From a bacterium (lineage in GTDB: Bacteria; CG2-30-53-67; CG2-30-70-394), in the NCBI GenBank assembly GCA_024278555.1, contig JAJRSX010000073.1, forward strand, positions 1 through 17,007: a stretch of 17,007 nt of DNA, in the 5' to 3' direction. Of this stretch, positions 2-12,776 are shown one piece after another. Every line of letters starts with the position of its first letter. Within the stretch, counting starts at the first letter, position 1. The notes under the pieces are model-generated. The model did not search any database and was not told where the DNA came from. It saw nothing but the letters and a program-made list of their open reading frames with translations. Made by a program: the position numbers and the translations under genes.

Positions 2-120
2 CCCCGGCCCTCCGGGCCGGCCGGGGCCTCCGGCCCCGGATCGCGGGTGCAACCCGCTCCCACCCACTCCACGCACATCGCGGCCCCCCCATCCCCGGCT
101 CGCGCAGCGAGCCCGAGCCG
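2..120 (+). repeat. Composite hairpin leader upstream of ftsE
   Basis: Positions 2-74 form three adjacent mini-hairpins: GGCCC-TCC-GGGCC, GGGGCC-TCC-GGCCCC and GCGGGT-GCA-ACCCGC. Each has a 5-6 bp stem and a 3-nt loop. This 73-bp block recurs at 11424-11496 with three mismatches (positions 30, 61 and 70), one of them in a hairpin loop and the others outside the stems. After a C-rich spacer comes a perfect 7-bp hairpin, GGCTCGC-GCA-GCGAGCC (97-113), whose core GCGCAGCG ends 11 nt before the ftsE ATG. No purine-rich Shine-Dalgarno is seen. Whether it acts as DNA or RNA is unknown. Confidence 0.8.
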
Positions 121-807
121 ATGATCCGCTTCGACCACGTCACCAAGGACTTCGGCCATGGCGAGCCGGTCCTCCGTGACCTCTCGTTTCATATCGAGCC
201 GGGGGAGCTCTCCTTTCTGATCGGCCGCTCGGGGGCGGGAAAGACGACCCTCCTGCGGCTGATCTACGGCGCCGAACGGCCCGACTCGGGCACCATCCGG
301 GTGGCCGGCCGCGACGTGTCGCGCCTGCGCAAGGGGTCGGTGCCGTACCTGCGGCGCAACATCGGGATCATCTTCCAGGACAGCAAGCTCCTGGAGAGCC
401 GCACGGTGGAGGGCAACATCCTCTTCGCCCTGCAGGTGGCGGGGATCGGCGGCCGCATTGCCCGCCGCCGGGTGGGCGAACTCTTGGAACGGGTCGGGAT
501 GGCCGGACGGGAGGAGAGCTGGCCCGCGGAGCTCTCCGGCGGCGAACAGCAGCGGGTGGCGATCGCCCGGGCGCTCGCCAACGAGCCGGCCCTGATCCTC
601 GCCGATGAGGCGACCGGCAACCTCGACCCGGACGTGAGCGAGGAGATCCTCAACCTATTCGACGCGATCAACCAGGCAGGGACCACGATCCTCTTCGCCA
701 CCCACGACATGGACGTGGTGCGCGAGATGCGCAAGCGCGTCCTCACCCTGGTGGCCGGCGAGGTGGTGAGCGACCGGCCGCCGGAGCTGGAGGCGGCATA
801 TGGATAG
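121..807 (+). CDS. ftsE: Cell division ATP-binding protein FtsE
   Basis: This is an ABC-type ATPase of 228 aa, close to the usual FtsE length of about 220. Walker A is GRSGAGKT (35-42), the Q-loop Gln lies in IIFQD (around 86), the signature is LSGGEQQR (138-145), Walker B is LILADEAT (158-165) and the switch His is in ATHD (around 195). FtsE binds ATP on the cytoplasmic side of FtsX. In known systems the pair relays the state of the division ring to periplasmic peptidoglycan hydrolase activators. The next genes are ftsX and an EnvC-type activator, which supports FtsE over a generic ABC exporter ATPase. The ATG at 121 follows a hairpin module rather than a Shine-Dalgarno. The last G of the TAG stop is the first base of another mini-hairpin (807-821). 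Confidence 0.96.
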   Translation: MIRFDHVTKDFGHGEPVLRDLSFHIEPGELSFLIGRSGAGKTTLLRLIYGAERPDSGTIRVAGRDVSRLRKGSVPYLRRNIGIIFQDSKLLESRTVEGNILFALQVAGIGGRIARRRVGELLERVGMAGREESWPAELSGGEQQRVAIARALANEPALILADEATGNLDPDVSEEILNLFDAINQAGTTILFATHDMDVVREMRKRVLTLVAGEVVSDRPPELEAAYG

Positions 808-997
808 GGGCCTGCGGCCCCAGGGGGTGGGGGGTGGGGGATGGACGGCCCTGGCGGGCCGACGGAGATGACGATGAGCACGACCCCGGAAAATTGTGTT
901 GGCCGCGCAACGGCCAACCGGCCCCTCACCCCCCATCCCGCGCGCGTAGCGAGCCCACCCCGGCGCGCCCCATCCCCACGAGCGTAGCGAGCCCCCC
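807..997 (+). repeat. Mini-hairpin array between ftsE and ftsX
   Basis: This 190-bp gap contains GGGGCC-TGC-GGCCCC (807-821, the same hairpin as in the thiS leader), CGGCCC-TGGC-GGGCCG (846-861) and TGGCCG-CGCAA-CGGCCA (900-916). These are followed by two copies of the GCGTAGCG-core module (core at 944-951 and 982-989), each in a C-rich context with CCCCAT. The second copy runs through C's straight into the ftsX ATG at 998, so the start codon looks like part of the repeat (CCCCCCATG against CCCCCCATC at the first copy). The module order matches the yggT and thiS leaders. I see no canonical ribosome-binding site and no credible ORF. Confidence 0.75.
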
Positions 998-1903
998 ATG
1001 TCCCGTCCCCTCTACCGCCTGGCCTACCTCTTTGCCGAGGGGGTGCGCGCGGTGCGTACCCACCTGGCCCTGGCGGTGATGACCGGTCTCACGATCGCCG
1101 TCACCCTGCTCCTCCTCGGCCTCTTTGGGGCCGTCTACCACGACCTCGCCGGGGTGGCGGAGCGGATCCACGACGAGCTGGGGATGGTGGTCTTCCTCAC
1201 CGACGACTGCGCCCCTGCCCAGCGCGCCGCCCTCACCGCCTGGCTCCACCACCGCCCGGAGGTGGCGCGGATGGAGGAGACGAGCAAGGAGGAGGCGGCC
1301 GCCGCCTTCGCCAGCCGCCACCCGGAGAGCGCCCAGCTCCTCGCCCTGTTGGAGGAGAACCCCCTGCCGGCGAGCCTCGAAATCCACCTCGACCCGGCGG
1401 TGACCGCCTCGGCGATGACCGCCCTGGTCCACGAGGTGGAGGGGTTTGCCGGGGTCGACTCGGTGCGCTACGGCAAGCAGTGGCTGGCCACCCTCCTGAG
1501 CCTCACCCGCTGGCTGCGCGGTGCGGGCGCGGCGGTAGGCGCCCTGCTCGCGGTCGCCGCCCTCTTTATCGTCTCCAACCAGGTGGCGATGTCGATCTAC
1601 GCCCGCCGGGAGGAGATCGACATCATGCGCCTGATCGGCGCCACCAACCGTTTCATCCGCGCCCCCTTCTACCTTGAAGGGGCGATCACCGGCCTCTTCG
1701 GCGGGGTGGTGGCGGCACTCCTACTCTCCGCGGCCCACGCCCTGATCGGGCCGCTGCTCGCCGCCGGAGGCGGCGGCCTGCTGGTCGGCTCCCTCGACCT
1801 CATCTCCTGGAGGGCCGGCCAGGTGGCGGTCTTCGCGGGCGCCGGGGCGCTCCTTGGGATGGTCGGCTGCTGGGCCTCCCTCGGCCGCTTCCTGAAGGGA
1901 TGA
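998..1903 (+). CDS. ftsX: Cell division protein FtsX (permease-like)
   Basis: This 301-aa inner-membrane protein has the FtsX layout: a short cytoplasmic N-terminus, TM1 at about 24-47, a periplasmic loop at about 50-170, then TM2 (173-196), TM3 (226-248) and TM4 (272-294). The stretch with RREEIDIMRLIGATNRFIR (203-221) is the conserved FtsX/MacB-fold segment between TM2 and TM3. FtsX is the membrane partner of FtsE, and its periplasmic loop contacts EnvC-like coiled coils. The stop overlaps the start of the next gene (ATGA at 1900-1903), indicating translational coupling to the EnvC homologue. The 190-bp gap to ftsE is unusual, since the two genes normally abut or overlap. Confidence 0.94.
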   Translation: MSRPLYRLAYLFAEGVRAVRTHLALAVMTGLTIAVTLLLLGLFGAVYHDLAGVAERIHDELGMVVFLTDDCAPAQRAALTAWLHHRPEVARMEETSKEEAAAAFASRHPESAQLLALLEENPLPASLEIHLDPAVTASAMTALVHEVEGFAGVDSVRYGKQWLATLLSLTRWLRGAGAAVGALLAVAALFIVSNQVAMSIYARREEIDIMRLIGATNRFIRAPFYLEGAITGLFGGVVAALLLSAAHALIGPLLAAGGGGLLVGSLDLISWRAGQVAVFAGAGALLGMVGCWASLGRFLKG

Positions 1904-3066
1904 TCGCCCTCGCGCCACTGCTTTTGTGCTGGGTTACCGCCGCTGCCGCGGCGCCGGCGGAGGTGGGCGAGATCGAGGCGCAGGTGAAGTCACGCCAGGC
2001 AGGGCTGGCGGCGATCGAGAGCGAGATCGACGCCGCCCAGGCGGCCCGCGACGCGAACCAGAAGGAGGGTCGCGACCTCGCCCGCCGGCTGCACAAGGTG
2101 GAGGCGGAGCTCACCGCGCGGCGCCGGGCGGTGGCCCGCCTCAACCAGGCCACCACCGAGCTCACCGAAGAGGTGGCCCGCCTGCGCGAGCGGCTCGCCG
2201 CCGCCACCGACGCGGTCCGCAAAGAGCGCACCCTGCTCGCCGCCCGCCTGCGCCAGCTCCACAAGGAGGGGGATCCGCCGCCGGCCATCGCCCTGCTCGC
2301 CAGCCGCCTCGACCCGTGGGCGGTGCTCCTCGACACCCGCTACCAAGAGGCGGTGGCAGCGGCCACCGGCCGGCGCATCGACCACCTCACCGAGGAGCAG
2401 ACCCGGCTAGAGACGGTGCGCCGGGAGCTCGCCGCCCGCCAACTCCGCCTCGACGAGGAGGGCCGCGCCCTCACCGCCGCCCGCACCCGCCTCGCCGAGA
2501 AGGTAACGGAACAGCGGGCCCTGCTCGCCAAGAGCCGGCGGGCGGGGCAGACCCTCGAAGAGCGGATCGCCACTCTGCAGGGCGACCGGAAACGGCTCGC
2601 CGCCATGCTCGACGACCTCTCCGCCCGCCGCCAGGCGGTGGCGACCCAAGGCCGGATCGCCGCCAGCCGCGGCCACCTGCCGTGGCCCCTGGTCGGCGAC
2701 GTGGTCGGCTTCTTCGGCGCCACCCCGGAGGGGGGGGGGGCCCCGGCCAACGGCATCCGCATCCAGCCCACCGCCAAGGGGAAGGTGCGGGCGGTGTGGG
2801 AGGGCGATGTGATCTTCGCCGATTGGTTTGAGGGGTACGGGCTCCTCCTGATTGTTGACCACGGATCGGGGTACTATTCGCTCTACGGCCACGCCTCGGG
2901 GCTCCTCGCCGCTGCCGGGGACCACGTACACCAGGGCGAGGCCATTGCCGATACGGCAGGTTTGCAGGCCGATCCCCTCTACTTCGAACTTCGCCAAGAT
3001 GGCCGTCCCATCGACCCCCTTCACTGGCTTGAAGGGCTCGCGGCCGTGGCCAGCACGGCGGACTAG
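1900..3066 (+). CDS. envC: EnvC-type murein hydrolase activator (degenerate LytM/M23)
   Basis: The protein is 388 aa. A signal peptide (about 1-18, ending in an Ala-rich cleavage site) is followed by a long Arg/Glu/Ala-rich coiled coil (about 20-255) and a C-terminal LytM fold (about 262-380). Zinc ligands of active M23 peptidases are missing: the HxGxD-like segment reads NGIRI, and the HxH position reads LYFELR. This matches EnvC, which activates amidases rather than cutting peptidoglycan itself. Coupling to ftsX (4-nt overlap) fits FtsEX-EnvC control of septal amidases. Codons 277-281 contain an uninterrupted 11-G run (2730-2740) in the linker at the start of the LytM domain. One inserted G would end the protein at the TGA at 2829-2831. 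Confidence 0.9.
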   Translation: MIALAPLLLCWVTAAAAAPAEVGEIEAQVKSRQAGLAAIESEIDAAQAARDANQKEGRDLARRLHKVEAELTARRRAVARLNQATTELTEEVARLRERLAAATDAVRKERTLLAARLRQLHKEGDPPPAIALLASRLDPWAVLLDTRYQEAVAAATGRRIDHLTEEQTRLETVRRELAARQLRLDEEGRALTAARTRLAEKVTEQRALLAKSRRAGQTLEERIATLQGDRKRLAAMLDDLSARRQAVATQGRIAASRGHLPWPLVGDVVGFFGATPEGGGAPANGIRIQPTAKGKVRAVWEGDVIFADWFEGYGLLLIVDHGSGYYSLYGHASGLLAAAGDHVHQGEAIADTAGLQADPLYFELRQDGRPIDPLHWLEGLAAVASTAD

Positions 3067-3068
3067 AC

Positions 3069-3240
3069 CGCATCTCTCGCCATGAATCTGCTCCGAACGC
3101 GCAATCACCCGCAGCTCCCGGCCGTGTCCTCGCCGGACGCCTCGCCGCACCGCAAGTGCACCTGCGCCGTTTGGCTTGCGGGCCGGCCAGGATCTGCGGA
3201 CGCTTGCACGCTCTCGCGACGATCCCTGGCGAGAGATGCG
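3069..3240. repeat. 172-nt segment bounded by a 14-bp inverted repeat; candidate structured RNA
   Basis: A perfect 14-bp inverted repeat, CGCATCTCTCGCCA (3069-3082) and its complement (3227-3240), encloses the whole envC-ctpA gap. Further complementary segments nest inside it in order: GCAA/TTGC (3101-3104 with 3204-3207), CCGCAG/CTGCGG (3109-3114 with 3194-3199), CCGGCC/GGCCGG (3118-3123 with 3181-3186), GTCC/GGAC (3126-3129 with 3135-3138) and CCGCAAG/CTTGCGG (3150-3156 with 3175-3181, sharing one base with the previous stem). The nested arrangement suggests an RNA fold. A small inverted-repeat element is the alternative. No ORF is credible here. Confidence 0.6.
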
Positions 3241-3285
3241 ATCTAACCCCTACCCCGTCGGCGCATGAAGCGCCTGGAGACCATC

Positions 3286-4647
3286 ATGCGTAGATTTCTC
3301 GTCTGGCGCTTCGCGCCTGCCGCCCTTGTTGTCGCCCTCCTCCTGTTGAGCGGCGCGGTCTCCCGCGTCCCCGACGTGCGCGGCGACGAGGCGGCACCGT
3401 ACAAGGCCCTCAAGCGGTTCTCCGAGGTCCTGGAGATCGTTGAGCGCAACTACGTGGAGCCGGAGGAGACGGACGACCTGATCGACGGTGCGATCAACGG
3501 GATGCTGCAAAACCTCGACCCCCACTCGTCGTTCATGACCCCCGACCTCTACCGCGAGATGCAGGTGGACACGAAGGGCGAGTTCGGCGGCCTCGGGATC
3601 CAGATCGGCATCAAGGACGGCCAGCTCACGGTCATCGCCCCGATCGAGGACACCCCCGCCTACAAGGCCGGGATCGAGGCGGGTGATTTCATCATGAAGG
3701 TGGACGACCACTTCACCAAGGGGATGTCCCTGATGGAGGCGGTGAAGCTGATGCGCGGCCCCAAGGGGATGAAGGTCACCCTCACCATCGTTCGCCGCGG
3801 CCTCAAGGAGCCGAAGGAGATCACCATCGTTCGCGACATCATCGCCATCAAATCGGTGCGCTCGGAGGTCCTCGACGACACAGTCGGCTACATCCGTATC
3901 TCCCAGTTTCAGGAGAAGACCGACAAGGAGCTCGCCAAGGCGATCGCCAAGCTCCAGGAGGCGCACGTGGAGGGCTACCTCCTCGACCTGCGGAACAACC
4001 CCGGCGGCCTCCTGGACCAGGCGGTGAAGGTCTCCGACGCCTTCCTGCCGGCGAAGAAGCTGGTGGTCTACATCCAGAATCGCAAGGGGCAAAAGCGGGA
4101 GTACTTCACCGAGAACAACGGCCTCGCCGAGTCGATCCCCCTGGTGGTGCTGGTCAACGGCGGCTCGGCCTCGGCGAGTGAGATCGTCTCCGGCTGCCTC
4201 CAGGACCACCACCGGGCGGTGATCCTCGGGACCCAGACCTTCGGCAAGGGGTCGGTGCAGACGGTGATCCCCCTCTCCGGCGGCTACGGCCTACGGCTCA
4301 CCACCGCCAAGTACTACACGCCGCGCGGCACCTCGATCCAGAACACCGGCATCACCCCGGACATCGAGGTCGCCCAGGAGCTGATCGTCGCCCACCAAGA
4401 GAACGGCGCCTCCTTCCACATCAAGGAGCGCGACCTGCGCCACCGCCTGGAAAACAAGGACCTCCCCAAGGACGAGGAGGCCGCTCCCAGCGACGCGGGA
4501 GAGGGTGACGACCAGGAGGCGACCGGCGAGGAGGAGCGGCGCGACTACCAGCTCCAGCGTGCCATCGACCTGATCAAGTCGATCGCTGTCTACGAAAAGC
4601 TCGGCCAGCCGACGCCGGTCGAGGCGGCCGCCGCCGCCAACGGCTGA
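3286..4647 (+). CDS. ctpA: Carboxyl-terminal processing protease CtpA (S41 family)
   Basis: The protein is 453 aa from ATG 3286. That start has GGAG (3276-3279) 6 nt upstream, whereas the in-frame ATG at 3265 has no such site. The N-terminus carries an uncleaved anchor or signal segment (about residues 9-25). The PDZ domain (about 93-175, with GGLGIQIG) and the S41 core follow. The NPGG motif is at 238-241, the catalytic Ser is in SASASEI (Ser296) and the general-base Lys is in FGKGSVQ (Lys321). The 25-residue Ser-Lys spacing matches Tsp/Prc. An acidic, charged C-terminal tail (from about 390) is variable in the family. These periplasmic proteases trim C-termini, often of peptidoglycan hydrolases, and ctpA after envC is a recurrent neighbourhood. 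Confidence 0.94.
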   Translation: MRRFLVWRFAPAALVVALLLLSGAVSRVPDVRGDEAAPYKALKRFSEVLEIVERNYVEPEETDDLIDGAINGMLQNLDPHSSFMTPDLYREMQVDTKGEFGGLGIQIGIKDGQLTVIAPIEDTPAYKAGIEAGDFIMKVDDHFTKGMSLMEAVKLMRGPKGMKVTLTIVRRGLKEPKEITIVRDIIAIKSVRSEVLDDTVGYIRISQFQEKTDKELAKAIAKLQEAHVEGYLLDLRNNPGGLLDQAVKVSDAFLPAKKLVVYIQNRKGQKREYFTENNGLAESIPLVVLVNGGSASASEIVSGCLQDHHRAVILGTQTFGKGSVQTVIPLSGGYGLRLTTAKYYTPRGTSIQNTGITPDIEVAQELIVAHQENGASFHIKERDLRHRLENKDLPKDEEAAPSDAGEGDDQEATGEEERRDYQLQRAIDLIKSIAVYEKLGQPTPVEAAAAANG

Positions 4648-4675
4648 GGCTGCCCTGCAACGAGCCACACAGCGA

Positions 4676-4716
4676 GGGCCGCGGCGGCACGGGAAGGGTC
4701 CCGGCCACCGCGGCCC
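4676..4716. terminator. Compound hairpin between convergent ctpA and trxA
   Basis: GGGCCGCGG (4676-4684) pairs perfectly with CCGCGGCCC (4708-4716). Inside it CGGGA-AGGG-TCCCG (4690-4703) forms a second stem. It lies 29 bp after the ctpA stop and between converging genes, so termination in one or both directions is plausible. There is no U-run, so it is not a textbook intrinsic terminator. Confidence 0.45.
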
Positions 4717-4728
4717 ACTGTCTGGGGA

Positions 4729-4745
4729 TGCCCCGCGACGGGGCA
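4729..4745. terminator. Second short hairpin in the ctpA/trxA gap
   Basis: TGCCCC-GCGAC-GGGGCA forms a 6-bp stem with a 5-nt loop, 15 bp beyond the trxA stop on the minus strand. It is a possible weak terminator or mRNA end stabiliser for trxA. No T-run follows it. Confidence 0.3.
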
Positions 4746-4760
4746 CGGCCCAATGAGAGG

Positions 4761-5084
4761 CTACGCCCCGAGCTCGTTGAGGATGTTCACGTAGCTCGAC
4801 TTGGGCTGGACACCCACGGTCTGCTTGGCGATCTTGCCGTCCTTGAAGAAGATCACCGTGGGAATCGACATGATCCCGAACTTCGCGGCAACAGCGCGGT
4901 TGTGGTCGGTGTTCAACTTGCCCACCTTCACCCGACCGTCAAACTCCTTCGCAACCTCCTCGATGGTCGGCCCCAACATCCGACACGGGGCACACCACTC
5001 GGCCCAAAAATCCACCATGACGGGGATGTCGGACTGGAGAACCTCGGCATCGAAGTTGTCATCCGTCAACGTCAACTCACTCAT
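4761..5084 (-). CDS. trxA: Thioredoxin
   Basis: This is a single-domain thioredoxin of 107 aa, the standard length. The redox motif is WCAPC (residues 30-34) rather than the more common WCGPC, a variant present in many bacterial thioredoxins. The buried Asp is in VDFWAEW and the cis-Pro is in SIPTV (Pro75). It should reduce cytoplasmic protein disulfides with NADPH via thioredoxin reductase, which is not in this window. The start is supported by GGAG 7 nt upstream of ATG 5084 on the minus strand. It is transcribed alone, divergent from the LysM gene and convergent with ctpA. Confidence 0.96.
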   Translation of the reverse strand: MSELTLTDDNFDAEVLQSDIPVMVDFWAEWCAPCRMLGPTIEEVAKEFDGRVKVGKLNTDHNRAVAAKFGIMSIPTVIFFKDGKIAKQTVGVQPKSSYVNILNELGA

Positions 5085-5286
5085 GTGCTGGCTCCATTAG
5101 ATTTTCAAAGGGGACAGGATGTTCGCTTACCACACCCTACAATGCCAAGTACGGGGGCACACGAGAACCACCTGCCGGAAATCACAGCCACTGCCGATGC
5201 CAAGATGGCACAGTGCTCTCGTGCAAGCCGTAAAGAACCAACAAGGAGCCCAACGATTCACCTGCAGCGCCAATTGCCGATAAGCC

Positions 5287-5315
5287 CTCATGGACTCGCC
5301 AGGCGGGTCCATGAG
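5287..5315. promoter_or_regulatory. Strong hairpin in the trxA / LysM divergent region
   Basis: CTCATGGAC (5287-5295) pairs with GTCCATGAG (5307-5315). A T-G pair and two more GC pairs extend this to 12 bp around a CCAGG loop. It lies 47 bp before the LysM start and 200 bp before trxA in an otherwise gene-free 278-bp stretch that is visibly less GC-rich than its surroundings. It could be a leader hairpin or an operator. I could not identify convincing -35/-10 boxes nearby. Confidence 0.4.
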
Positions 5316-5362
5316 GAGCACCGTGTCCTAAACCTGACATGCTCCCAACACCGAGGTTGCCC

Positions 5363-6469
5363 ATGTCCCCTACCGCCGACCGTCTCATCCCCGCCATCGC
5401 CCTCGTGGTGGCCTCCTTCGCCATGGCCGCCAGCGCCACCACCATGGAGGAGCGCCTCAACCATGGAGACCACATCCACGGCCTCTACCCGAGCAAGGAG
5501 CACGTGGTGGTCCACGGCGACACCCTGTGGGACCTCTCGGGAAACTACCTGAAAGACCCCTTCATCTGGCCGGAGATCTGGCAGGTCAATCCGCAGATCG
5601 ACGACCCGGACCGGATCTACCCCGGCAACCAGGTCCAGCTCCCGGGCCACGCCCGGGGAACGCCACCGACCCCCCGCCTGCCCCACCTTGCCGCCCCGGC
5701 CCCGCCACCGGCCCCGCCGACGTCCGCCGAGGCCGCGGCCCCCGAGACGCCACCGGCGCCACCGGCGCCGCTGGTGGCTTCCACTGATCGCATCGCCCAT
5801 ACCGGCTGGCTCGCCGGCCTCCACGAAGAGGTGGGGGTGGGCCGCATCCTCGGGAGCTGGCACGGCCAGCGCAAGATGCTCGCCACCGACGCCTCGGTCT
5901 ACCTCAACCTCGGGAACCGCGACGGGGTAGTCGCGGGGGACCGTTTCCAGGTGGTCGAGAGGGGCGATGTCATCCGCCACCCGGTGACCGACGAACCGGT
6001 GGGTCGTCTGATCCGGGTCGTCGGTGAGATCGAGCTCACCGAGATCCACGACGCCACCTCCTCCGGCCGCATCATCCGCGCCTTCGCCCCGATGACCGCG
6101 GGAGATCGCGTGATGCCGGTACCCAGCCCGCCGCCGGTGGCGGCGCGACCGCGCGGCGACGGCCCCGACGGTCTCAAGGCGACGGTGGTCGCCACCCCGG
6201 ACAAGCGGGTGGCGATCGCCACCAACGACGTGATCTTCCTCGACGTCGGCACCGACCAGGAGGTACGCCCCGGGGACCACTTCTACCTCATCCGTGACAA
6301 CACCCTGTTCGCCGAGGCCGGCCCGATGCGCTACGCCAGCGAGGCGGTGGTCCTCGATGCCCGCGCCCACACCAGCACGGCGCTGATCACCAAGAGCCTC
6401 ACCGAGGCCTACGTGGGCAACCGGGCCGCCTACGCCAGCGCGCCGCTGCCCAACATCTACCACCAATGA
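5363..6469 (+). CDS. LysM and FlgT_C-like protein, TsaP-like secretin-associated factor
   Basis: The protein is 368 aa from ATG 5363, which has GAGG 6 nt upstream. An in-frame ATG at 5339 lacks a site and would spoil the signal peptide. Layout: signal peptide (about 1-25), LysM peptidoglycan-binding domain (about 45-95, with HGDTLWDLSGNYLKDP and WPEIWQVNPQI), Pro/Ala-rich linker (99-137), then two beta-rich segments (about 155-253 and 270-355). The phrases VYLNLGNRDGVVAGDRF and FLDVGTDQEVRPGDHFYLI in these segments resemble FlgT C-terminal domains. This is the architecture of TsaP, which anchors type IV pilus secretins to peptidoglycan. A generic LysM cell-wall protein is the alternative. No pilus genes are in the window. 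Confidence 0.8.
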   Translation: MSPTADRLIPAIALVVASFAMAASATTMEERLNHGDHIHGLYPSKEHVVVHGDTLWDLSGNYLKDPFIWPEIWQVNPQIDDPDRIYPGNQVQLPGHARGTPPTPRLPHLAAPAPPPAPPTSAEAAAPETPPAPPAPLVASTDRIAHTGWLAGLHEEVGVGRILGSWHGQRKMLATDASVYLNLGNRDGVVAGDRFQVVERGDVIRHPVTDEPVGRLIRVVGEIELTEIHDATSSGRIIRAFAPMTAGDRVMPVPSPPPVAARPRGDGPDGLKATVVATPDKRVAIATNDVIFLDVGTDQEVRPGDHFYLIRDNTLFAEAGPMRYASEAVVLDARAHTSTALITKSLTEAYVGNRAAYASAPLPNIYHQ

Positions 6470-6493
6470 ATCGCGATCCTCGCGATCCATAAA

Positions 6494-6530: not shown

Positions 6531-6535
6531 ACGTA

Positions 6536-6612
<77 letters not shown>

Positions 6613-6671
6613 GAAGGGTGGTGCGTTGGAGGCGGAATCTTATCGTGTTTCCCGCAAAGGTAAAGGGCCGC

Positions 6672-7061
6672 TCACGCCTCCCAGACCGCCTCCGGGTAGT
6701 GCTCTCGAATGAGCACATCCTTGGTGAGGAGGGGGGTACTGTCGATGGCGGCCTGGGCGACAATCAACCGGTCGAAGGGATCCCGGGTCCACGTCTGGCC
6801 GAGGGCCACGGCGACCACCTCGGGAAACGGCCTATCGCTGCGGGTGAGGCCGAGACGTCGGTGCAGATCTTCGACCACCTCACCACCGGGGATCGCGGTT
6901 CGGCCGATCTCGCAGAGGTACTCCAGCTCCAACTCGACCATGGGGGAGATCACCAGAGCGTGGTCCTGGAGCAGGGCCCGGTTCCCCTCTCCGAGGCATT
7001 CGAGGTCGCCGGCAAAGAGCCACGCGACCACGTGGGTGTCGAGGTGGATCACGGCCTCCAC
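6672..7061 (-). CDS. vapC: PIN-domain toxin, VapC-like ribonuclease
   Basis: A PIN-domain protein of 129 aa, the usual VapC length. The acidic metal-binding residues expected of PIN nucleases are present: Asp8 in HLDTHV, Glu43 in SPMVELELEYL, Asp94/Asp97 in RDPFDRLIVAQA and Asp115 in LLTKD. VapC toxins are Mg-dependent RNases, often cutting tRNA or rRNA, held in check by a co-translated antitoxin. The gene overlaps the antitoxin by 13 nt, typical of such operons. It looks intact. It sits between tRNA-Val and tRNA-Asp on the same strand as the tRNAs. The RNA target cannot be inferred. Confidence 0.9.
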   Translation of the reverse strand: MEAVIHLDTHVVAWLFAGDLECLGEGNRALLQDHALVISPMVELELEYLCEIGRTAIPGGEVVEDLHRRLGLTRSDRPFPEVVAVALGQTWTRDPFDRLIVAQAAIDSTPLLTKDVLIREHYPEAVWEA

Positions 7062-7270
7062 TCGCCGGACCAGTCTCGGTGCACCAGCTCCTCGGGGTCA
7101 CACTTGAGGTAGTCGGAGCGCCTGGGGAGATGGTCGAGAGGGCTGCCCCCCACCGGCACGATGCGCAACAGATGACCCCGCCGCTCCACCTCAAGGGGGA
7201 TGCCCGATTCCAGCACCTGGTCCAGAAGGCGGTAGATATTCGCCCGAAGCTTCGATGCGTTCATGGGCAT
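7049..7270 (-). CDS. Phd/YefM-like antitoxin (VapB role)
   Basis: This is a 73-aa protein from ATG 7270, chosen because GAGG lies about 8 nt upstream and the conserved N-terminus (MNASKLRANIYRLLDQVLES) begins just after it. A longer frame to 7342 would start inside the probable promoter. The N-terminal half resembles the Phd/YefM DNA-binding fold (ASKLRANIYRLLD, then PLEVERRGHLLRIVP). The C-terminal tail (LVHRDWSGEW) is likely the toxin-neutralising part. It directly precedes and overlaps the PIN toxin. Autoregulation through the CGTACG-rich upstream DNA is likely but inferred. Confidence 0.85.
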   Translation of the reverse strand: MPMNASKLRANIYRLLDQVLESGIPLEVERRGHLLRIVPVGGSPLDHLPRRSDYLKCDPEELVHRDWSGEWRP

Positions 7271-7313
7271 GGCCAATTCCTCGATCTCCACTCTCCCCAA
7301 CAGCACGAAATCG

Positions 7314-7356
7314 AGGGTATCGCAACCACGTACGTACGTCAACGATACTACGTACG
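7314..7356 (-). promoter_or_regulatory. Probable vapBC promoter with CGTACG operator repeats
   Basis: On the minus strand TTGACG (complement of 7337-7342) and TACCCT (complement of 7314-7319) are separated by 17 bp: a good -35 and a weak -10. The overlapping DNA holds self-complementary repeats ACGTACGTACGT (7328-7339) and TACGTACG (7349-7356), positioned as an operator for antitoxin autorepression would be. Confidence 0.45.
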
Positions 7357-7437
7357 CCCCTAATCGTCGGGTGGGAATCTCGCGCAGAGAGGATCAGCGG
7401 AAATAGCCCCGAGCGTTCCGTCGTCCTTCACACCGCT

Positions 7438-7524
7438 GGAACACGAAACCACGAAAGGAGGAAAGCACGAAAAACAACCGATTGAATTCTTTCGTGTTTT
7501 GAACTTTTCGTGCTTTCGTGTTCC
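7438..7524. repeat. Mirror-symmetric CACGAAA array (87-bp interrupted palindrome)
   Basis: Three direct CACGAAA units (starting 7442, 7450, 7466) face three inverted units (7490, 7506, 7514). All three pairs are symmetric about position 7481, with spacings of 8 and 16 bp in each arm. The outermost arms extend to GGAACACGAAA, and AAAGCACGAAAA (7462-7473) also has a perfect 12-nt inverse at 7505-7516. The stretch is AT-richer than its surroundings. The rest of the 588-bp gene-free gap (7271-7858) holds no credible gene. Confidence 0.8.
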
Positions 7525-7858
7525 CACCCCCTCGAGGTCTCGGGAACATCGACTTTCTCGCCAGCCATGATTTCCGCTGCTCCTCGGAGGGAGGGAGATA
7601 TGGAGGGCGTGGCGCCGTCCTCGCTACCCCGGACGCCCATTCCGGCCCGGAGGGCAGGGCCGCACGCGAAGCCGCGAAGCTCTCTCCCGACCACCGCGGG
7701 CGCGGGTGACCTCACCGGTCCACTCGGCGTCCGGCCGGAGGCGCGTACGCCGCAGCAGGCGCTCCGAAGGCCCGCTTCACCCCTCGTCACCTCAGCCCTC
7801 CGAGGCCCACGGTTCCCCCCTTCGGAGCGGCTGCGCTACCAGCCGGAACGGACACGCA

Positions 7859-7934
7859 TGGTGGGCGAAACAGGGCTCGAACCTGTGACCCCCGGCTTGT
7901 AAGGCCGGTGCTCTCCCAGCTGAGCTATTCGCCC
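7859..7934 (-). tRNA. tRNA-Val (TAC)
   Basis: A 76-nt tRNA with acceptor GGGCGAA paired to TTCGCCC, discriminator A and encoded CCA. The anticodon stem CCGGC/GCCGG encloses CTTACAA, giving TAC. The D-arm has AGCTCAGCTGGGAGAGC and the T-arm GGTTCGAGCCC. It is third in the Lys-Glu-Val run and 29 bp from tRNA-Glu. Confidence 0.97.
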
Positions 7935-7963
7935 GGTGCGCAAATAAAGCCAGCGAAAAAATA

Positions 7964-8041
7964 TGGCGTCCCCAAGGGGATTTGAACCCCTGTCGCCGCC
8001 GTGAAAGGGCGGTGTCCTAGGCCTGACTAGACGATGGGGAC
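7964..8041 (-). tRNA. tRNA-Glu (TTC)
   Basis: A 78-nt tRNA with acceptor GTCCCCA paired to TGGGGAC, discriminator G and encoded CCA. The anticodon loop CTTTCAC lies in stem CCGCC/GGCGG. The D-loop is about two bases longer than in the E. coli tRNA. It lies between tRNA-Lys (46 bp upstream) and tRNA-Val. Confidence 0.97.
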
Positions 8042-8087
8042 AGGGTTCCTCTTCAGTTGGCTTCCTCGGGTCTATCCCCCGGCGGTG

Positions 8088-8163
8088 TGGTGAGCCGTGA
8101 AGGGATCGAACCTTCGACCCGCTGCTTAAAAGGCAGCTGCTCTACCGACTGAGCTAACGGCTC
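8088..8163 (-). tRNA. tRNA-Lys (TTT)
   Basis: A 76-nt tRNA with acceptor GAGCCGT paired to ACGGCTC, discriminator A and encoded CCA. The anticodon stem GCTGC/GCAGC holds CTTTTAA. It begins 49 bp after the purA stop on the same strand, so purA and the tRNAs may share a transcript. Confidence 0.97.
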
Positions 8164-8212
8164 CCTCCAGGCGATGAGATGCCGACGAGTCGCGGGTTAT
8201 AGGCAAGGGACC

Positions 8213-9505
8213 CTAGAAAGGCAAGTCGTTGATGATGGTCGACTCGCGCTCCGGGCCGGTGGCGACCAGGCCGATCGGTACCCCGACCAGCCGCTCGATC
8301 TCCTTCAGGTAGGCACGCGCCTGCTTCGGCAGCTTGGCCAGATCGGTGATCCCGTGGGTGGTGGTCTCCCACCCCGCCATCTCCTTGTAGACCGGCTCGC
8401 AGGCGGCGAAGAGCTTCCCCTGGGTGGGGAAGGTGGCGAGCTCCTCGCCATCGACCCGGTAGCCGGTGCAGATACGCAGGGTCGGCAGCTCGTCGAGGAC
8501 GTCGAGCTTGGTGATCGCCAGGGTGGTGAGGCCGTTGAGCTGCGCCGAGCGACGCACGAGGACCGCGTCGAACCAGCCACAGCGGCGGGTGCGGCCGGTG
8601 GTGGCGCCGAACTCGCCGCCGGTGGTCTGCAGGCGGACGCCGATCTCGTCGTTGAGCTCCGTGGGGAAGGGGCCCTCGCCCACCCGGGTGGTGTACGCCT
8701 TGACGATCCCCACCACCCCGTCGATCTGGGTCGGGCCGATGCCCAGGCCGGTGCACGCCCCGCCGGCGGTGCAGTTCGACGAGGTGACGAAAGGATAGGT
8801 GCCGTGGTCAATGTCCAGGTGGGTCCCCTGGGCGCCTTCGATGAGGAGGTTGCGGCCCGCGGCCATCGTCTCCTGCACCACCGTCACCGTGTCGGTGATG
8901 TGGTCCGCGAGCCGCTGGCCGTAGCCGAGGTAGACCTTGCACACCTCCTCCACCACCAGGGGCGGGGTGGCGTACCGCTGCACCATGATCGGGTTCACCT
9001 CGTCGAGGACCCGCTTCACCTTCTCCTTCAAGAGGGCCGGGTCGAGGAGATCCCCCATGCGGATCCCGCTACGGTCCATCTTCGCGGTGTAGGTGGGGCC
9101 GATGCCACGGCCGGTGGTGCCGATCTTGGTGGTACCGCTCTGCGCCTGCGCCTCGCGCCCCTGATCGATGACCACGTGCCACGGCATGATCACGTGCGCC
9201 GCGTTGCTGATGGAGAGCCGGCCGGCGAGGCGGATGCCGCGCTCCTCCAGGCCGTCGATCTCCTCGATCAGGTCGCTTGGCGAGATCACCACCCCGTTGC
9301 CGATCACCATCTGCTTGTCCTCGGCGAAGACCCCCGAGGGGACAAGGTGGAGGATGAATTGCCCCTTGTCGTTGATCACCGTGTGGCCGGCGTTGTGGCC
9401 GCCTTGAAAGCGCGCCACCACGTCGGCGTGCTCGGTGAGGAGATCGACGATCTTCCCCTTGCCCTCATCACCCCACTGACTTCCGACGACGACGACAGTC
9501 GACAT
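8213..9505 (-). CDS. purA: Adenylosuccinate synthetase
   Basis: The protein is 430 aa, the family length. It joins IMP and aspartate using GTP, the first committed step to AMP. Signatures are GSQWGDEGKGK at residues 8-18 (P-loop and catalytic Asp), GHNAGHT at about 36-42 (catalytic His), GTTGRGIGP in the middle and the TTGEFGATTGRTRRCGWFD-type region near 300. Start ATG 9505 has GAGGAG 6 nt upstream on the minus strand. It is divergent from proC, and tRNA-Lys, -Glu and -Val follow downstream on the same strand. A long open frame on the opposite strand is only its shadow. Confidence 0.97.
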   Translation of the reverse strand: MSTVVVVGSQWGDEGKGKIVDLLTEHADVVARFQGGHNAGHTVINDKGQFILHLVPSGVFAEDKQMVIGNGVVISPSDLIEEIDGLEERGIRLAGRLSISNAAHVIMPWHVVIDQGREAQAQSGTTKIGTTGRGIGPTYTAKMDRSGIRMGDLLDPALLKEKVKRVLDEVNPIMVQRYATPPLVVEEVCKVYLGYGQRLADHITDTVTVVQETMAAGRNLLIEGAQGTHLDIDHGTYPFVTSSNCTAGGACTGLGIGPTQIDGVVGIVKAYTTRVGEGPFPTELNDEIGVRLQTTGGEFGATTGRTRRCGWFDAVLVRRSAQLNGLTTLAITKLDVLDELPTLRICTGYRVDGEELATFPTQGKLFAACEPVYKEMAGWETTTHGITDLAKLPKQARAYLKEIERLVGVPIGLVATGPERESTIINDLPF

Positions 9506-9590
9506 GACACACTCCTCGTAGGCCGATCCCTACCTTCAATTTGCCGCTTGCCGCTCCACACAGGGCCTGGGCACGGGCGGCCGTTGCATT

Positions 9591-9606
9591 CCCCACGTGG
9601 GTGGGG
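9591..9606. promoter_or_regulatory. Hairpin in the purA/proC divergent region
   Basis: CCCCAC-GTGG-GTGGGG forms a 6-bp stem in the 189-bp region between the two starts. A direct repeat TTGCCGC-TTGCCGC lies at 9541-9554. Neither resembles a known operator I can name, and promoter boxes are not convincing. Confidence 0.25.
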
Positions 9607-9694
9607 CACGGTACGCAAGTCTAAGAAAATGCACGGTCTCACACGCCCTTCGAGGGTGTCAAGAAAGCCACCAACTCCCGGCTACGGAGCGCAC

Positions 9695-10486
9695 ATGAAG
9701 ATCGGCGTCATCGGCGTGGGCAATATGGGGGAGGCGCTGGTACGGGGGATCCACGGCGCCGGCGGCCACACCCTCCTCCTCCACGACCTGCGCGCCGACC
9801 ACCTGCGGGCGGTGGCGAGCCGCTACAACGCCCACCCGTGCGCCGCCGCCACCGAGGTGGTAAGCGAGGCCGAGGTGGTCCTCCTGGCGATGAAGCCGCA
9901 GCAGATGGGCGCGGCAATGGCCTCGATGGCCGCTGCCGGCCGCCCGGAGACCCTGTGGGTGAGCGTCGCCGCCGGCATCACCCTCGCCACCCTCGCTGCC
10001 TCCCTGGGCAGCGACCGGGTGGTCCGGGTGATGCCCAACACCCCGGCGCTGATCGGCGAGGGCATGGTCTGCTTTGCCTGCGCCCCCGACCTCCCCGAGG
10101 GAGAGCGGCGAACGGTCGCCGCCCTCCTCGCCCCCCTGGGCAGGGTCGAAGCGGTCGACGAGGCGCAGATGGACGCGGTCACCGGCCTCTCCGGCTCCGG
10201 CCCCGCCTACGGGCTCCTGATCATCGAGGCCCTCGCCGAGGCAGGCGTCGCCGAGGGGCTCGCCGCCCCCCTCGCCCTGGAGCTCGCCGCCCAGACCCTG
10301 CGCGGCACCGCCACCCTCGCCCTGGAGTCCGACGACCACCCGGCCCTCCTGCGCCAACGGGTCACCTCACCCGGCGGTACCACCGCCCGCGGCCTCGCCG
10401 CCCTGGAGGAGGGCGGCGTGCGCGCCGCCCTGGCCGCCGCGGTCCGGGCCGCCACCGCCCGCTCCCGGGAGCTGGGGGAGAGGTAG
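9695..10486 (+). CDS. proC: Pyrroline-5-carboxylate reductase
   Basis: The protein is 263 aa from ATG 9695, with GGAG 5 nt upstream. The frame stays open far upstream, but only because it runs antisense to purA. The N-terminal Rossmann motif is GVGNMG (7-12), followed by AMKPQ, VVRVMPNTPA, GLSGSGPAY and SPGGTTA, the P5CR signature set. It makes proline from pyrroline-5-carboxylate with NAD(P)H. The order proC-yggT is a common neighbourhood in proteobacteria. It is followed after 161 bp by yggT. Confidence 0.96.
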   Translation: MKIGVIGVGNMGEALVRGIHGAGGHTLLLHDLRADHLRAVASRYNAHPCAAATEVVSEAEVVLLAMKPQQMGAAMASMAAAGRPETLWVSVAAGITLATLAASLGSDRVVRVMPNTPALIGEGMVCFACAPDLPEGERRTVAALLAPLGRVEAVDEAQMDAVTGLSGSGPAYGLLIIEALAEAGVAEGLAAPLALELAAQTLRGTATLALESDDHPALLRQRVTSPGGTTARGLAALEEGGVRAALAAAVRAATARSRELGER

Positions 10487-10496
10487 GAGCTAGGGA

Positions 10497-10647
10497 TGGA
10501 CAGCCCGTCGGGCTGAATGGACCCTTCAATGAACGCTCCCCACGAAACAGACCGCTGGCCGCACAGCGGCCAACCGCCCCCCCATCCCCCATCCCGCGAG
10601 CGAAGCGAGCCCATCCCCCACCCCTGCGAGCAAAGCGCGCCCCCCCC
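10497..10647 (+). repeat. Modular hairpin leader upstream of yggT
   Basis: The modules in order are CAGCCC-GTC-GGGCTG (10501-10515), a linker with CACGAAACAG, TGGCCGC-ACA-GCGGCCA (10556-10572), then GCGAGCGAAGCGAGC (10596-10610) and a second core module GCAAAGCG (10630-10637). The second core is followed by a C-run into ATG 10648. The first hairpin differs from its relatives at 846 and 11337 by a compensating pair (CGGCCC/GGGCCG against CAGCCC/GGGCTG). No Shine-Dalgarno is visible. Confidence 0.75.
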
Positions 10648-10950
10648 ATGTTCATCATCGGCAACCTGCTCACCGCCGTCGCCACCCTGCTCCATTTGGT
10701 GATCTTCTTCCTCTACCTGGTCCTCATCTTCCAGGCGGTGATCTCCTGGGTGAACCCGGACCCGTACAACCCGATCGTCCGCACCCTGAACGCGGTCACC
10801 GGGCCGATCCTCGGCCGCATCCGCGCCCGCCTGCCGTGGCTCGCCTCCGGCGGCATCGACTTCTCCCCCCTCGTGGTCCTCCTCGGCCTCCTCTTTGTCG
10901 ACCAATTCCTGGTGGCGACCCTGCGGGAGCTGGGCCAGCGGCTCCATTGA
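10648..10950 (+). CDS. yggT: YggT family membrane protein
   Basis: A small integral membrane protein of 100 aa with one YGGT unit: a hydrophobic helix at about 8-34 ending in ISWVNPDPYNPIVRTLNAVT, and a second helix at about 68-92. E. coli YggT has two such units, while single-unit forms are common elsewhere. The conserved loop WVNPDPYNP followed by TGPILGRIR is diagnostic. The function is not firmly known. Links to osmotic tolerance and, in some bacteria, to division-site proteins have been proposed. It lies between proC and yggU, as in many proteobacteria. Confidence 0.9.
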   Translation: MFIIGNLLTAVATLLHLVIFFLYLVLIFQAVISWVNPDPYNPIVRTLNAVTGPILGRIRARLPWLASGGIDFSPLVVLLGLLFVDQFLVATLRELGQRLH

Positions 10951-11255
10951 GTGCCCCGTTGCCGTGTCGTGACGGGCGCGGCGGCGCCCACCTGGCCCTC
11001 CACGTCCAGCCGCGGGCAAGCCGCTCGCGGATCACCGGCCTCCACGGTGGGGCGATCAAGGTGCAGCTCACCGCCCCGCCGGTCGAGGGGAAGGCGAACA
11101 AGGCGCTCATCGCCTTGCTCGCCAAGCTCCTCCGCCTCCCCAAGGGGTCGATCACCGTGGCCCGCGGCGACACCGGCCGTGATAAAGTACTCCGCTTTGA
11201 AGGGGTCACCTGCGCCGACCTGGCCGAGCGCCTCGGGGAGTATCTGGGGGGCTGA
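10947..11255 (+). CDS. yggU: YggU / DUF167 family protein
   Basis: The protein is about 102 aa. The diagnostic DUF167 stretch LALHVQPRASRSRITGLHG is followed by IKVQLTAPPVEGKANKALI and a C-terminal alpha/beta segment. There is no ATG in a sensible place. TTG 10947, overlapping the yggT stop (TTGA), gives an N-terminus SAPLPCRDG that matches the family start well. TTG 10959 is the alternative. The nearby GTG codons are out of frame. Function is unknown. Overlap with yggT implies translational coupling. Confidence 0.85.
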   Translation: MSAPLPCRDGRGGAHLALHVQPRASRSRITGLHGGAIKVQLTAPPVEGKANKALIALLAKLLRLPKGSITVARGDTGRDKVLRFEGVTCADLAERLGEYLGG

Positions 11256-11333
11256 GGCGGCACAAGGGGGTGGGGGTGTCGAATGGAACAGAGCGGGCGA
11301 AGGGGCTAGGAATTAGGGCGTACAGGTTAGGGA

Positions 11334-11603
11334 GGACGGCCCTGTGGGCCGGATGAAATGCCAATGGTAGCCGTCACGAAACACGACTTCCGGCCGCGTG
11401 GTAGGAGGGGATTGTACCCCCGACCCCGGCCCTCCGGGCCGGCCGGGGCCTGCGGCCCCGGATCGCGGGTGCAACCCGCTCCTACCCACTCTACGCGCAC
11501 CGTGCCCTCCTCCCGGCGCGCGTAGCGCGCCACCCTCTGGCCGCGCAGCGGCCAGCCAACCTCAACCCCTAATCCCCATCCCCCGGCGAGCAGAGCGAGC
11601 CCC
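11334..11603 (+). repeat. Largest modular leader, upstream of thiS
   Basis: The 348-bp yggU-thiS gap has no gene. It holds CGGCCC-TGT-GGGCCG (11337-11351) and a palindromic composite (11401-11485) whose ends GTAGGAG and CTCCTAC are complementary and which contains four small hairpins. It also holds GGCGCGC-GTA-GCGCGCC (11515-11531), TGGCCGC-GCA-GCGGCCA (11538-11554) and the core GCAGAGCG (11590-11597), 6 nt before the thiS ATG. Positions 11424-11496 are the near-identical copy of 2-74. No TPP riboswitch is seen. The first about 75 bp after yggU show nothing notable. Confidence 0.8.
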
Positions 11604-11804
11604 ATGCACATCACCCTCAACGGCGAGCCCTACCCGGTGAACCCCGGGACCACCGTGGGCGACCTCCTCGCCCTCCTGGCCCTCGACCCGGAGCGGGTGG
11701 TGGTCGAGCACAACCGCGCCATCCTCGACCGCACCACCGCCCCGGCGCAGCCCCTGGCCGACGGTGACGAGGTGGAGATCGTCACCATGGTGGGGGGCGG
11801 ATGA
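11604..11804 (+). CDS. thiS: Sulfur carrier protein ThiS
   Basis: A 66-aa ubiquitin-fold protein, the standard ThiS size. The N-terminus MHITLNGEPYPV and the middle VVVEHNRAILDR are typical. The C-terminus DEVEIVTMVGGG carries the required terminal Gly-Gly, which is adenylated and thiocarboxylated to deliver sulfur for thiazole synthesis. Its partner thiG lies 192 bp downstream across another hairpin leader. In many genomes the two genes are adjacent or nearly so. The start is preceded by a repeat core and C-run rather than a Shine-Dalgarno. Confidence 0.94.
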   Translation: MHITLNGEPYPVNPGTTVGDLLALLALDPERVVVEHNRAILDRTTAPAQPLADGDEVEIVTMVGGG

Positions 11805-11821
11805 GCCGGTTTCCCGAGGTT

Positions 11822-11996
11822 GCCTCCGGCTAAAAGCCGGCTCCCGTAGGCGATCCCGGCCCGCAGGGCCGGCCGCGCCCGCGGCGCGGTTCGCGAGCAG
11901 GAGCTCGCTCCTACCACACCCCCAACAACCGAAGTCCTCCCCGGCCGCAAGCCGGCACCACCCCCCTCACCCCCCCGCGAGCCAAGCGAGCCCCCC
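11822..11996 (+). repeat. Modular hairpin leader upstream of thiG
   Basis: Hairpins in order: CCGGCT-AAA-AGCCGG (11826-11840), CCGGCCC-GCA-GGGCCGG (11856-11872), CCGCGCC-CGC-GGCGCGG (11873-11889) and GCGAGC-AGGA-GCTCGC (11893-11908), then CTCCTACC. This follows the plan of the 2-74 and 11424-11496 copies, but the arms have changed on both sides so that pairing is kept. After a C-rich spacer the core GCCAAGCG (11981-11988) sits 8 nt before the ATG at 11997. Confidence 0.75.
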
Positions 11997-12776
11997 ATGA
12001 CCGACGACACCCCCCTGCAGATCGGCGACCACACCTTCCACTCCCGCCTCATCATCGGCTCCGGCAAGTACAAGGACTTTGCCGAGACCCGGGCGGCGCT
12101 GGACGCCTCGGGCGCCGAGATGATCACCGTGGCGGTGCGGCGGGTGAACATCACCGACCCGGCCAAGGAGAACCTCCTCGACGCCCTCGACCTCGAGCGC
12201 ACCACCATCCTCCCCAACACCGCCGGCTGCACCACCGCCGACGAGTGCGTCCGCACCGCCCGCCTGGCCCGCGCCGCCGGCATCACCGACCTGGTGAAGG
12301 TGGAGGTGATCGGCGACCCCAAGACCCTCTACCCGGACACCGCCGCCACCCTGGAGGCGACCGAGATCCTCGCCAAGGAGGGGTTCACCTGCCTGCCCTA
12401 CACCACCGACGACCCGGTGGTGGCGCAGCGGCTGGTCGATGCGGGCGCCGCCGCCATCATGCCCCTGGCCGCCCCGATCGGCTCGGGGCTCGGCGTCTGC
12501 AACCCCTACACCCTGCGCATCCTCCTGGAGATCCTCACCGTGCCGGTGATCGTCGACGCCGGCGTGGGCACCGCCTCCGACGCCACCGTGGTCATGGAGA
12601 TGGGAGCCGACGGGGTCCTGATGAACACCGCCATCGCCGGTGCCGAGGACCCCATCGCCATGGCCCGCGCCATGAAGCTCGGCGTCGAGGCGGGCCGCCT
12701 CGCCTACCGCGCCGGCCGCATCCCGAAGAAGCTCTACGCCACCGCCTCCTCGCCCCTGGAGGGGGTGGTGCGGTAG
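11997..12776 (+). CDS. thiG: Thiazole synthase ThiG
   Basis: A TIM-barrel protein of 259 aa, the family length. The N-terminus has the characteristic [10 protein letters not shown]. The mid-segment has VAVRRVNI and LPNTAGC. The Schiff-base Lys is in LVKVEVIGD (Lys101). The phosphate-binding end has [11 protein letters not shown] and [11 protein letters not shown]. It condenses deoxyxylulose-5-phosphate, dehydroglycine and ThiS-thiocarboxylate into the thiazole moiety. The gene supplying dehydroglycine (thiO or thiH) is not in the window. Confidence 0.97.

What the first reader, a model, noticed from the sequence alone, without database searches (positions are those of the whole stretch)
2..11999. 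One modular hairpin 'leader kit' in front of five unrelated genes
Seen directly: the leaders of ftsE, ftsX, yggT, thiS and thiG draw on shared modules in a consistent order. (A) GGAC[G/A]GCCC-loop-GGGC[C/T]G at 846, 10501 and 11337. (B) TGGCCG...CGGCCA at 900, 10556 and 11538. (D) The 73-bp triple-hairpin block at 2 and 11424, with a diverged relative at 11826. (C) A GC-N-N-AGCG core in a C-rich context, once or twice, always last before the ATG. Loops are usually 3 nt. Arms differ between loci but stay complementary (for example CGGCCC/GGGCCG and CAGCCC/GGGCTG), which suggests selection on pairing. The modules are confined to gaps directly before start codons, unlike ordinary REP elements, which mostly lie after genes. 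Inference: a genome-wide family of small mobile or templated RNA modules that builds 5' UTRs.
Basis: partly seen in the sequence, partly recalled or inferred. Interest (0 to 1): 0.8.

Follow-up and report, generated by a model that had tools for sequence, protein, structure and literature searches.

The report
Dispersed palindromic repeats between operon genes
The hairpins in front of these genes belong to a family of about 110 small mobile-looking DNA repeats that sit between neighbouring genes read in the same direction, so they are a new family of a known kind of bacterial repeat rather than a kit for building gene leaders.

Summary
The modules are real, at the stated places, and far beyond chance. 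They are parts of two dispersed repeat families. Family 1 holds modules A, B and C. Its core is an ~86-nt unit: hairpin A, a ~40-nt linker with conserved blocks, hairpin B. Most copies have a G-rich tract 5' and a C-rich tract 3'; in this species they often end in the C module. A covariance model finds at least 111 copies (E<=0.001) in this 3.06-Mb genome, 21 in the sister species CG2_30_70_394, and none convincing in six other same-class genomes. Seven occupied gaps could be compared; the sister lacks the A/B core at all seven. Family 2 is block D, most of an ~84-bp GTAG-tagged REPIN. The '5' UTR builder' reading fails: 28 of 31 sampled cores lie between co-directional genes, filling stop to start; 1 is convergent and 2 divergent. 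D has 0 of 20 copies in divergent gaps. Core covariation is limited to one pair in hairpin A. Pairing of the G and C tracts is barely above chance. Best reading: a genus-restricted, non-autonomous palindromic repeat (ERIC/REPIN-like) retained at operon junctions, probably transcribed as an intercistronic structure. Its driver, and any regulatory effect, remain unshown.

The parts
2..63 (+). Right part of a GTAG-tagged REPIN (block D) in front of ftsE; its left end is cut off by the contig start
   Evidence: 96% identical to 11424-11496; ends CGCGGGTGCAACCCGCTCCCAC
98..112 (+). C module (GCTCGC-GCA-GCGAGC) before the ftsE ATG
   Evidence: sequence
808..997 (+). Complete composite element filling the ftsE stop to ftsX start gap
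   Evidence: core scores 72.3 bits with model R1
823..842 (+). G-rich tract (5' arm) of the ftsX element
843..861 (+). Hairpin A, ftsX element
862..899 (+). Linker with conserved blocks (GATGACGATG..)
   Evidence: alignment A1
900..916 (+). Hairpin B, ftsX element
940..954 (+). C module, first copy, ftsX element
978..992 (+). C module, second copy, 5 nt before the ftsX ATG
   Evidence: the sister keeps GCGAGCCCAGCGAG before its ftsX ATG
10487..10647 (+). Complete composite element filling the proC stop to yggT start gap; about 27 nt in the sister species
   Evidence: core 79.1 bits; sister gap
10498..10515 (+). Hairpin A (CAGCCC/GGGCTG form), yggT element
10556..10572 (+). Hairpin B, yggT element
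10596..10610 (+). C module, first copy, yggT element
10626..10640 (+). C module, second copy, yggT element
11330..11400 (+). A/B core interrupted in hairpin B by a REPIN (thiS leader)
   Evidence: 58.6 bits with an insertion; sequence
11401..11485 (+).
   Evidence: 22 such units of about 84 bp in the sample
11515..11531 (+). C-type palindrome GGCGCGC-GTA-GCGCGCC
11538..11554 (+). Hairpin B copy, thiS leader
11586..11600 (+). C module, 3 nt before the thiS ATG
11826..11917 (+). Diverged REPIN-like block in the thiG leader, ending GAGCTCGCTCCTACC
11977..11991 (+). C module, 5 nt before the thiG ATG

Best explanation
Two families of small dispersed palindromic repeats occupy these gaps. The first, absent outside the genus as far as searched, is a composite element. 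Its core is an ~86-nt unit: hairpin A, a ~40-nt linker, hairpin B. In most copies a G-rich tract precedes the core and a C-rich tract follows it; in this species the ends often carry the palindromic C module. It spread as a non-autonomous element (inferred; the mobilising enzyme is not identified). It survives mainly between co-directional genes, where it fills the space from stop codon to start codon without breaking either gene (shown). There it would be co-transcribed and act, if at all, as a structured intercistronic spacer on stability or relative expression of the two cistrons, as described for REP and ERIC repeats (inferred; this functional step alone about 0.35). The second family, block D, is a GTAG-tagged REPIN of ~84 bp of the usual REP kind, in one case inserted inside a copy of the first.
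For: Dispersed families: A pattern 43 times in the own genome against 1 in the sister; core model at least 111 hits at E<=0.001 in own, 21 in sister, one borderline hit (E 0.00125) in six other same-class genomes and two at E about 0.09 in one of 18 more distant genomes. D at 40 or more scored places, both strands, and 22 complete GTAGGAG..CTCCTAC units in a 0.89-Mb sample. Mobility: the sister lacks the A/B core at L095:11495 (243 nt against 3 nt), proC-yggT (161 against 27), ftsE-ftsX (190 against 60), L095:8296 and three gaps of L066, although it holds the same architecture at other places. Junction bias: 28 tandem, 1 convergent, 2 divergent against 65/18/17% expected (p=0.0014); genome-wide A hits 35 tandem, 3 convergent, 0 divergent. 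Fill: median about 40 nt from stop to core and about 50-60 nt from core to start. G tract before C tract in 28 of 29 tandem gaps that hold both. One genome RAYT passes the NCBIfam REP_Tyr_transpos cut-off; four Y1_Tnp genes in all.
Against: None of the four Y1_Tnp genes has an A/B core in the flanks shown, at most ~1.5 kb on each side, so no driver is identified. The one clean empty site shows no target-site duplication. Copies are only about 70% alike, so transposition is not recent, and template-switch growth of palindromes in place could explain part of the pattern. In several compared gaps the sister has other sequence of similar length, so these need not be simple insertions. No RNA data were available.
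Confidence: 0.8

Rival explanations
1. One reading: a modular kit of RNA hairpins that builds 5' UTRs and acts on the downstream gene only.
For: The C module sits a median of 7 nt before the start codon. Core orientation is biased with the genes, 30 to 5 genome-wide and 20 to 8 in the sample. Genes behind elements have fewer Shine-Dalgarno-like motifs, 5 of 26 against 112 of 168.
Against: Elements also directly follow a stop codon; only 2 of 31 sampled cores are in divergent gaps where 5.3 are expected, and 0 of 38 genome-wide A hits. In convergent gaps the same element runs from stop to stop (L066:242-404, L119). Several orthologous genes in the sister do without it.
Confidence: 0.07
2. RNA bridge: the G-rich and C-rich tracts pair in the mRNA and bring the upstream stop next to the downstream start, so that translational coupling survives the insertion.
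For: Tracts are G-rich then C-rich in 28 of 29 tandem gaps. Some single elements fold into one long hairpin, for example L208, z about -7. Orthologous gaps without the element can be very short (3 and 27 nt).
Against: The folded stop-to-start distance is no shorter than in shuffled sequences or in gaps without elements (median 12, 13.6 and 10). Matching tracts of the same copy pair only slightly better than swapped ones (p about 0.03).
Confidence: 0.1
3. Growth in place: replication slippage and template switching at palindromes made the G/C tracts and perfected the hairpin arms, without transposition of the whole unit.
For: Tract types vary widely between copies (GGGATGGGG, TAGGGATT, GTAGAAAG). 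The G-C/A-T switch in hairpin A is independent of the B type, 9:7 against 5:5, as expected if arms are corrected to match.
Against: The core, with conserved linker blocks, recurs at over 100 places, which needs copying between loci. It may still explain the tracts and the arm matching.
Confidence: 0.2
4. Ordinary vertically inherited leaders that happen to look alike because the genome is G+C-rich.
For: CC before the start codon is common in this genome without elements. The sister keeps a C-like motif before ftsX and at L095:8296.
Against: Model scores up to 95 bits; the A pattern occurs 43 times against 2 for its reversed control; the core is absent from orthologous gaps.
Confidence: 0.03

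Closest known systems
GTAG-tagged REPs and REPINs with RAYT transposases (PMC3733652, PMC3116915)
   Same: Block D: two inverted hairpins ending GTAGGAG/CTCCTAC, fixed length of about 84 bp, in tandem and convergent gaps but not divergent ones; a REP-associated tyrosine transposase is encoded in the genome.
   Different: D carries two further inner hairpins and none of the four Y1_Tnp genes is flanked by a pair of D-type REPs. The A/B core resembles an inverted hairpin pair but has neither a GTAG nor a CGTC tag.
ERIC/IRU and other bacterial MITE-like intergenic repeats (PMC2229807)
   Same: Size of roughly 130-190 bp, imperfect palindrome, intergenic, mostly between co-directional genes, orientation bias, many copies of moderate divergence.
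   Different: No sequence relation is known to me and none was tested; G-rich and C-rich tracts are part of the unit; no target-site duplication seen at the one clean empty site; ends vary between species.
Heptad G-rich repeats (GGGAATC type) of Xanthomonas and Nostoc (PMC4692102)
   Same: Short G-rich units of about seven bases, intergenic, mostly between co-directional genes, close to the end of the upstream ORF.
   Different: Here the tracts come as an opposed G-rich and C-rich pair around a hairpin core.
REP dimers inserted in host palindromes (PMC3733652: H. neapolitanus, A. variabilis)
   Same: An inverted hairpin pair inside a larger palindrome.
   Different: Sequences and tags differ; the arms here are low-complexity tracts.

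Membership tests
GTAG-tagged REPIN (block D) | Two inverted REPs with GTAG at the outer ends, fixed spacing | tested here: met
   22 units GTAGGAG..CTCCTAC, median 83.5 bp, in the 0.89-Mb sample; window 11401-11485
GTAG-tagged REPIN (block D) | Located in tandem and convergent gaps, rarely divergent | tested here: met
   12 tandem, 8 convergent, 0 divergent, 2 at contig edges
GTAG-tagged REPIN (block D) | A RAYT gene flanked by the same REP | tested here: inconclusive
   Four Y1_Tnp genes; one tested, passes NCBIfam REP_Tyr_transpos; a single GTAG hairpin lies near one Y1_Tnp gene (L111), whose flanks otherwise carry GGGGTCAGGCTTGCAA repeats
GTAG- or CGTC-tagged REP (A/B core) | GTAG or CGTC tetranucleotide at the foot of the hairpin | tested here: not met
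   The foot of hairpin A is GGAC and of B (reverse strand) GGTT or GGTG; no conserved GTAG or CGTC tag at the hairpin feet in alignment A1
MITE/ERIC-like mobile repeat (A/B element) | Many dispersed copies with empty orthologous sites | tested here: met
   At least 111 copies; sister lacks the core at seven compared gaps
MITE/ERIC-like mobile repeat (A/B element) | Terminal inverted repeats | tested here: inconclusive
   G-rich and C-rich tracts and C-type ends oppose each other in many copies, but pairing within a copy is only slightly better than between copies
MITE/ERIC-like mobile repeat (A/B element) | Target-site duplication on insertion | tested here: inconclusive
   One clean empty site (L095:11495) shows none; too few sites
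Known structured RNA family | Match to an Rfam model | tested here: not met
   Only four tRNAs reach the gathering score in the window
5'-UTR regulatory element | Linked to 5' ends of genes, including divergent gaps | tested here: not met
   28 tandem, 1 convergent, 2 divergent

The most novel reading that the evidence does not exclude
The composite element is a mobile intercistronic module whose opposed G-rich and C-rich tracts and terminal C module act as a portable translation and RNA-stability junction, supplying the spacing and start context of the downstream gene wherever it inserts between two operon genes.
Probability: 0.12. Interest if true: 0.75.

Novelty: new variant of a known kind. 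Interest (0 to 1): 0.42.

Why it matters
It adds a family of intergenic palindromic repeats, with an unusual G-tract/hairpin-pair/C-tract build, in a little-studied lineage (a Nitrospirae-labelled candidate genus), and gives a dense natural set, over 100 copies in one genome, for asking how bacterial operons tolerate insertions between stop and start codons. It also corrects a tempting reading: a repeat that fills the whole gap between two co-directional genes looks like a leader if only the downstream gene is considered.

Tried and rejected
RNA-bridge idea: exterior-loop distance and shuffles gave no support. Tract covariation: weak. RAYT as driver of the A/B core: no core in the flanks shown around the four Y1_Tnp genes. 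CGTC-tagged REP: tag not present at the hairpin feet. Known RNA family: none. An early G/C-tract regular expression was too strict and was replaced. Of seven sister comparisons flagged automatically, L046 and L056 are probably not elements and L085 is ambiguous; they were not counted. Searching the DUF167-thiS-thiG stretch in the sister found no conserved order beyond yggT because contigs end there. The two sister flank searches of L202 gave no usable comparison.
Full report
What was checked. The window is contig C42 of a 3.06-Mb draft genome of 211 contigs. Its closest named relative by FtsX is Nitrospirae bacterium CG2_30_70_394 (79% identity), which is also the held sister genome G001, since G001:C123 has the same length as that record and its first 1.9 kb read as the reverse complement of the record's end.

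In 200 order-3 Markov versions of the window, hairpin A is never seen (3 observed), B averages 0.04 (6 observed) and C 0.3 (9 observed), both strands counted.

Two families, not one kit. Hairpins A and B are the ends of one ~86-nt core joined by a linker with conserved blocks (consensus near GATGAGATGACGATGGAAGCCACCCACGAAA). Twenty-seven cores align over their whole length with 70% mean column identity. Around most cores lies a G-rich tract on the 5' side and a C-rich tract on the 3' side, often ended by the C module (GCGAGC-NN-AGCGAGC) and sometimes by its complement at the 5' end. Some copies lack one tract or carry other inserts. Block D is the right part of a different element: an ~84-bp unit GTAGGAG..CTCCTAC with two inner hairpins, complete at window 11401-11485, with 22 full copies in the sample. 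At thiS it interrupts the B hairpin of an A/B copy.

Copy number and range. A model of the core finds at least 111 places at E<=0.001 in the own genome (a lower bound, because only 150 of 4496 candidates were scored), 21 in the sister, one borderline hit (E 0.00125) among six other genomes of the class, and two hits near E 0.09 in one of 18 more distant genomes. The exact A pattern occurs 43 times in own, once in the sister, and twice for the reversed control in own. An exact C pattern occurs 23 times in own and never in 40 other genomes. Six sister matches were inspected. Five lie in tandem gaps and one in a convergent gap; most carry a G-rich tract before the core and a C-rich tract after it, with other end sequences. 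So core and tracts are shared within the genus, while the C module is largely particular to this species.

Mobility. Sister sequence was available for seven gaps that hold an A/B core here: ftsE-ftsX, proC-yggT, L095:8296, L095:11495 and three gaps of L066. None has the core in the sister. At L095:11495 the sister has 3 nt between stop and start where this genome has 243; at proC-yggT 27 against 161; at ftsE-ftsX 60 against 190. At L095:8296 and the L066 gaps the sister has other sequence, sometimes of similar length, so those are not simple empty sites. At ftsX and L095:8296 the sister keeps a C-rich stretch and a C-like motif before the start, so the C end may be older than the core there. 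Upstream of ftsE the sister's preceding gene ends in an overlapping ATGA, whereas the window has D and C; the window's own preceding gene lies off the contig.

Placement. In a sample of 72 contigs (0.89 Mb) with genes called by a trained codon-pair score, 31 core matches were classified: 28 between co-directional genes, 1 convergent, 2 divergent, against 65, 18 and 17% of available intergenic positions (p=0.0014). Two further weak matches (E 0.005-0.009) were left out. Genome-wide A hits give 35 tandem, 3 convergent and 0 divergent, plus 3 at contig edges and 2 in predicted coding sequence. The core is near the middle of the gap, about 40 nt from the stop and 50-60 nt from the start as medians. 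In convergent gaps the element likewise runs from stop to stop (L066:242-404; L119). That the C module lies next to the ATG (median 7 nt) is therefore a result of filling the gap, not a mark of start codons as such. D has 12 tandem, 8 convergent and 0 divergent copies, the pattern published for REPs (PMC3733652).

Structure. Within the core, only one pair of hairpin A changes on both sides (14 G-C, 12 A-T, 1 A-C). That switch is independent of the B subtype (9:7 against 5:5), so it probably happened more than once or was reshuffled. The A pattern used to collect copies fixes most of the A stem, so invariance there is partly by construction. The outer tracts pair slightly better within a copy than between copies (p about 0.03). 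Folding the whole gap does not bring stop and start closer than in shuffled or element-free gaps. Pairing may be maintained by template-switch correction as well as by selection.

How it probably works. Shown: dispersed copies, absence of the core at orthologous gaps, tandem-gap preference, filling from stop to start, core orientation bias with the genes (30 to 5; 20 to 8). Genes behind elements have fewer Shine-Dalgarno-like motifs (5 of 26 against 112 of 168 in close tandem pairs), though the C module retains a GAG at SD-like spacing; whether that matters is inference. Inferred: spread as a non-autonomous element by an unidentified enzyme; retention where it breaks no gene and no promoter; transcription as an intercistronic structure with a possible effect on the stability of the two cistrons, by analogy with ERIC in Yersinia (PMC2229807) and with REPs. 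The G-rich tracts resemble the heptad repeats of Xanthomonas and Nostoc, which also lie close behind the upstream ORF (PMC4692102).

Verdict. A real and well-defined repeat family, new in sequence and build as far as the library searched shows, of a known kind. The proposed 5'-UTR builder is not supported.

Noticed in passing
window 1 (contig start); also G000 C142:1, C48:85 and C102:85: Several contigs begin within or near D-type repeats, including this window, so the repeats probably break the assembly and copy numbers are lower bounds.
   Followed up: partly
window 12913-13711: A small TacA-like (weak match) gene followed by a GNAT acetyltransferase lies between thiG and thiE, resembling a TacA/TacT-type toxin-antitoxin pair.
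   Followed up: partly
window 6672-7342 (-): A PIN-domain gene with an overlapping gene that weakly matches the Phd/YefM antitoxin family, beside a cluster of four tRNA genes (6539-8163).
   Followed up: partly
window 14711-14932: A truncated AAA_14-type ATPase fragment near an inverted pair CCTTGAAAAACG/CGTTTTTCAAGG, perhaps a decayed element.
   Followed up: no
L108, L109, L110, L111: The Y1_Tnp genes are bounded by other repeats (GGGGTCAGGTCTT, GGGGTCAGGCTTGCAA, GGGGACAGGACCCTTTT), suggesting further transposase-linked repeat families in this genome.
   Followed up: partly
L183, L198, L120, L202:1783, L213: Several A/B copies carry a GTAGAAAGTAGAAAG heptad run inside the linker, at about the same place.
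   Followed up: no
L219 around 12,000-12,330: An A/B copy with a nearly perfect GTAG-bounded palindrome of over 90 nt inserted in its B region.
   Followed up: no
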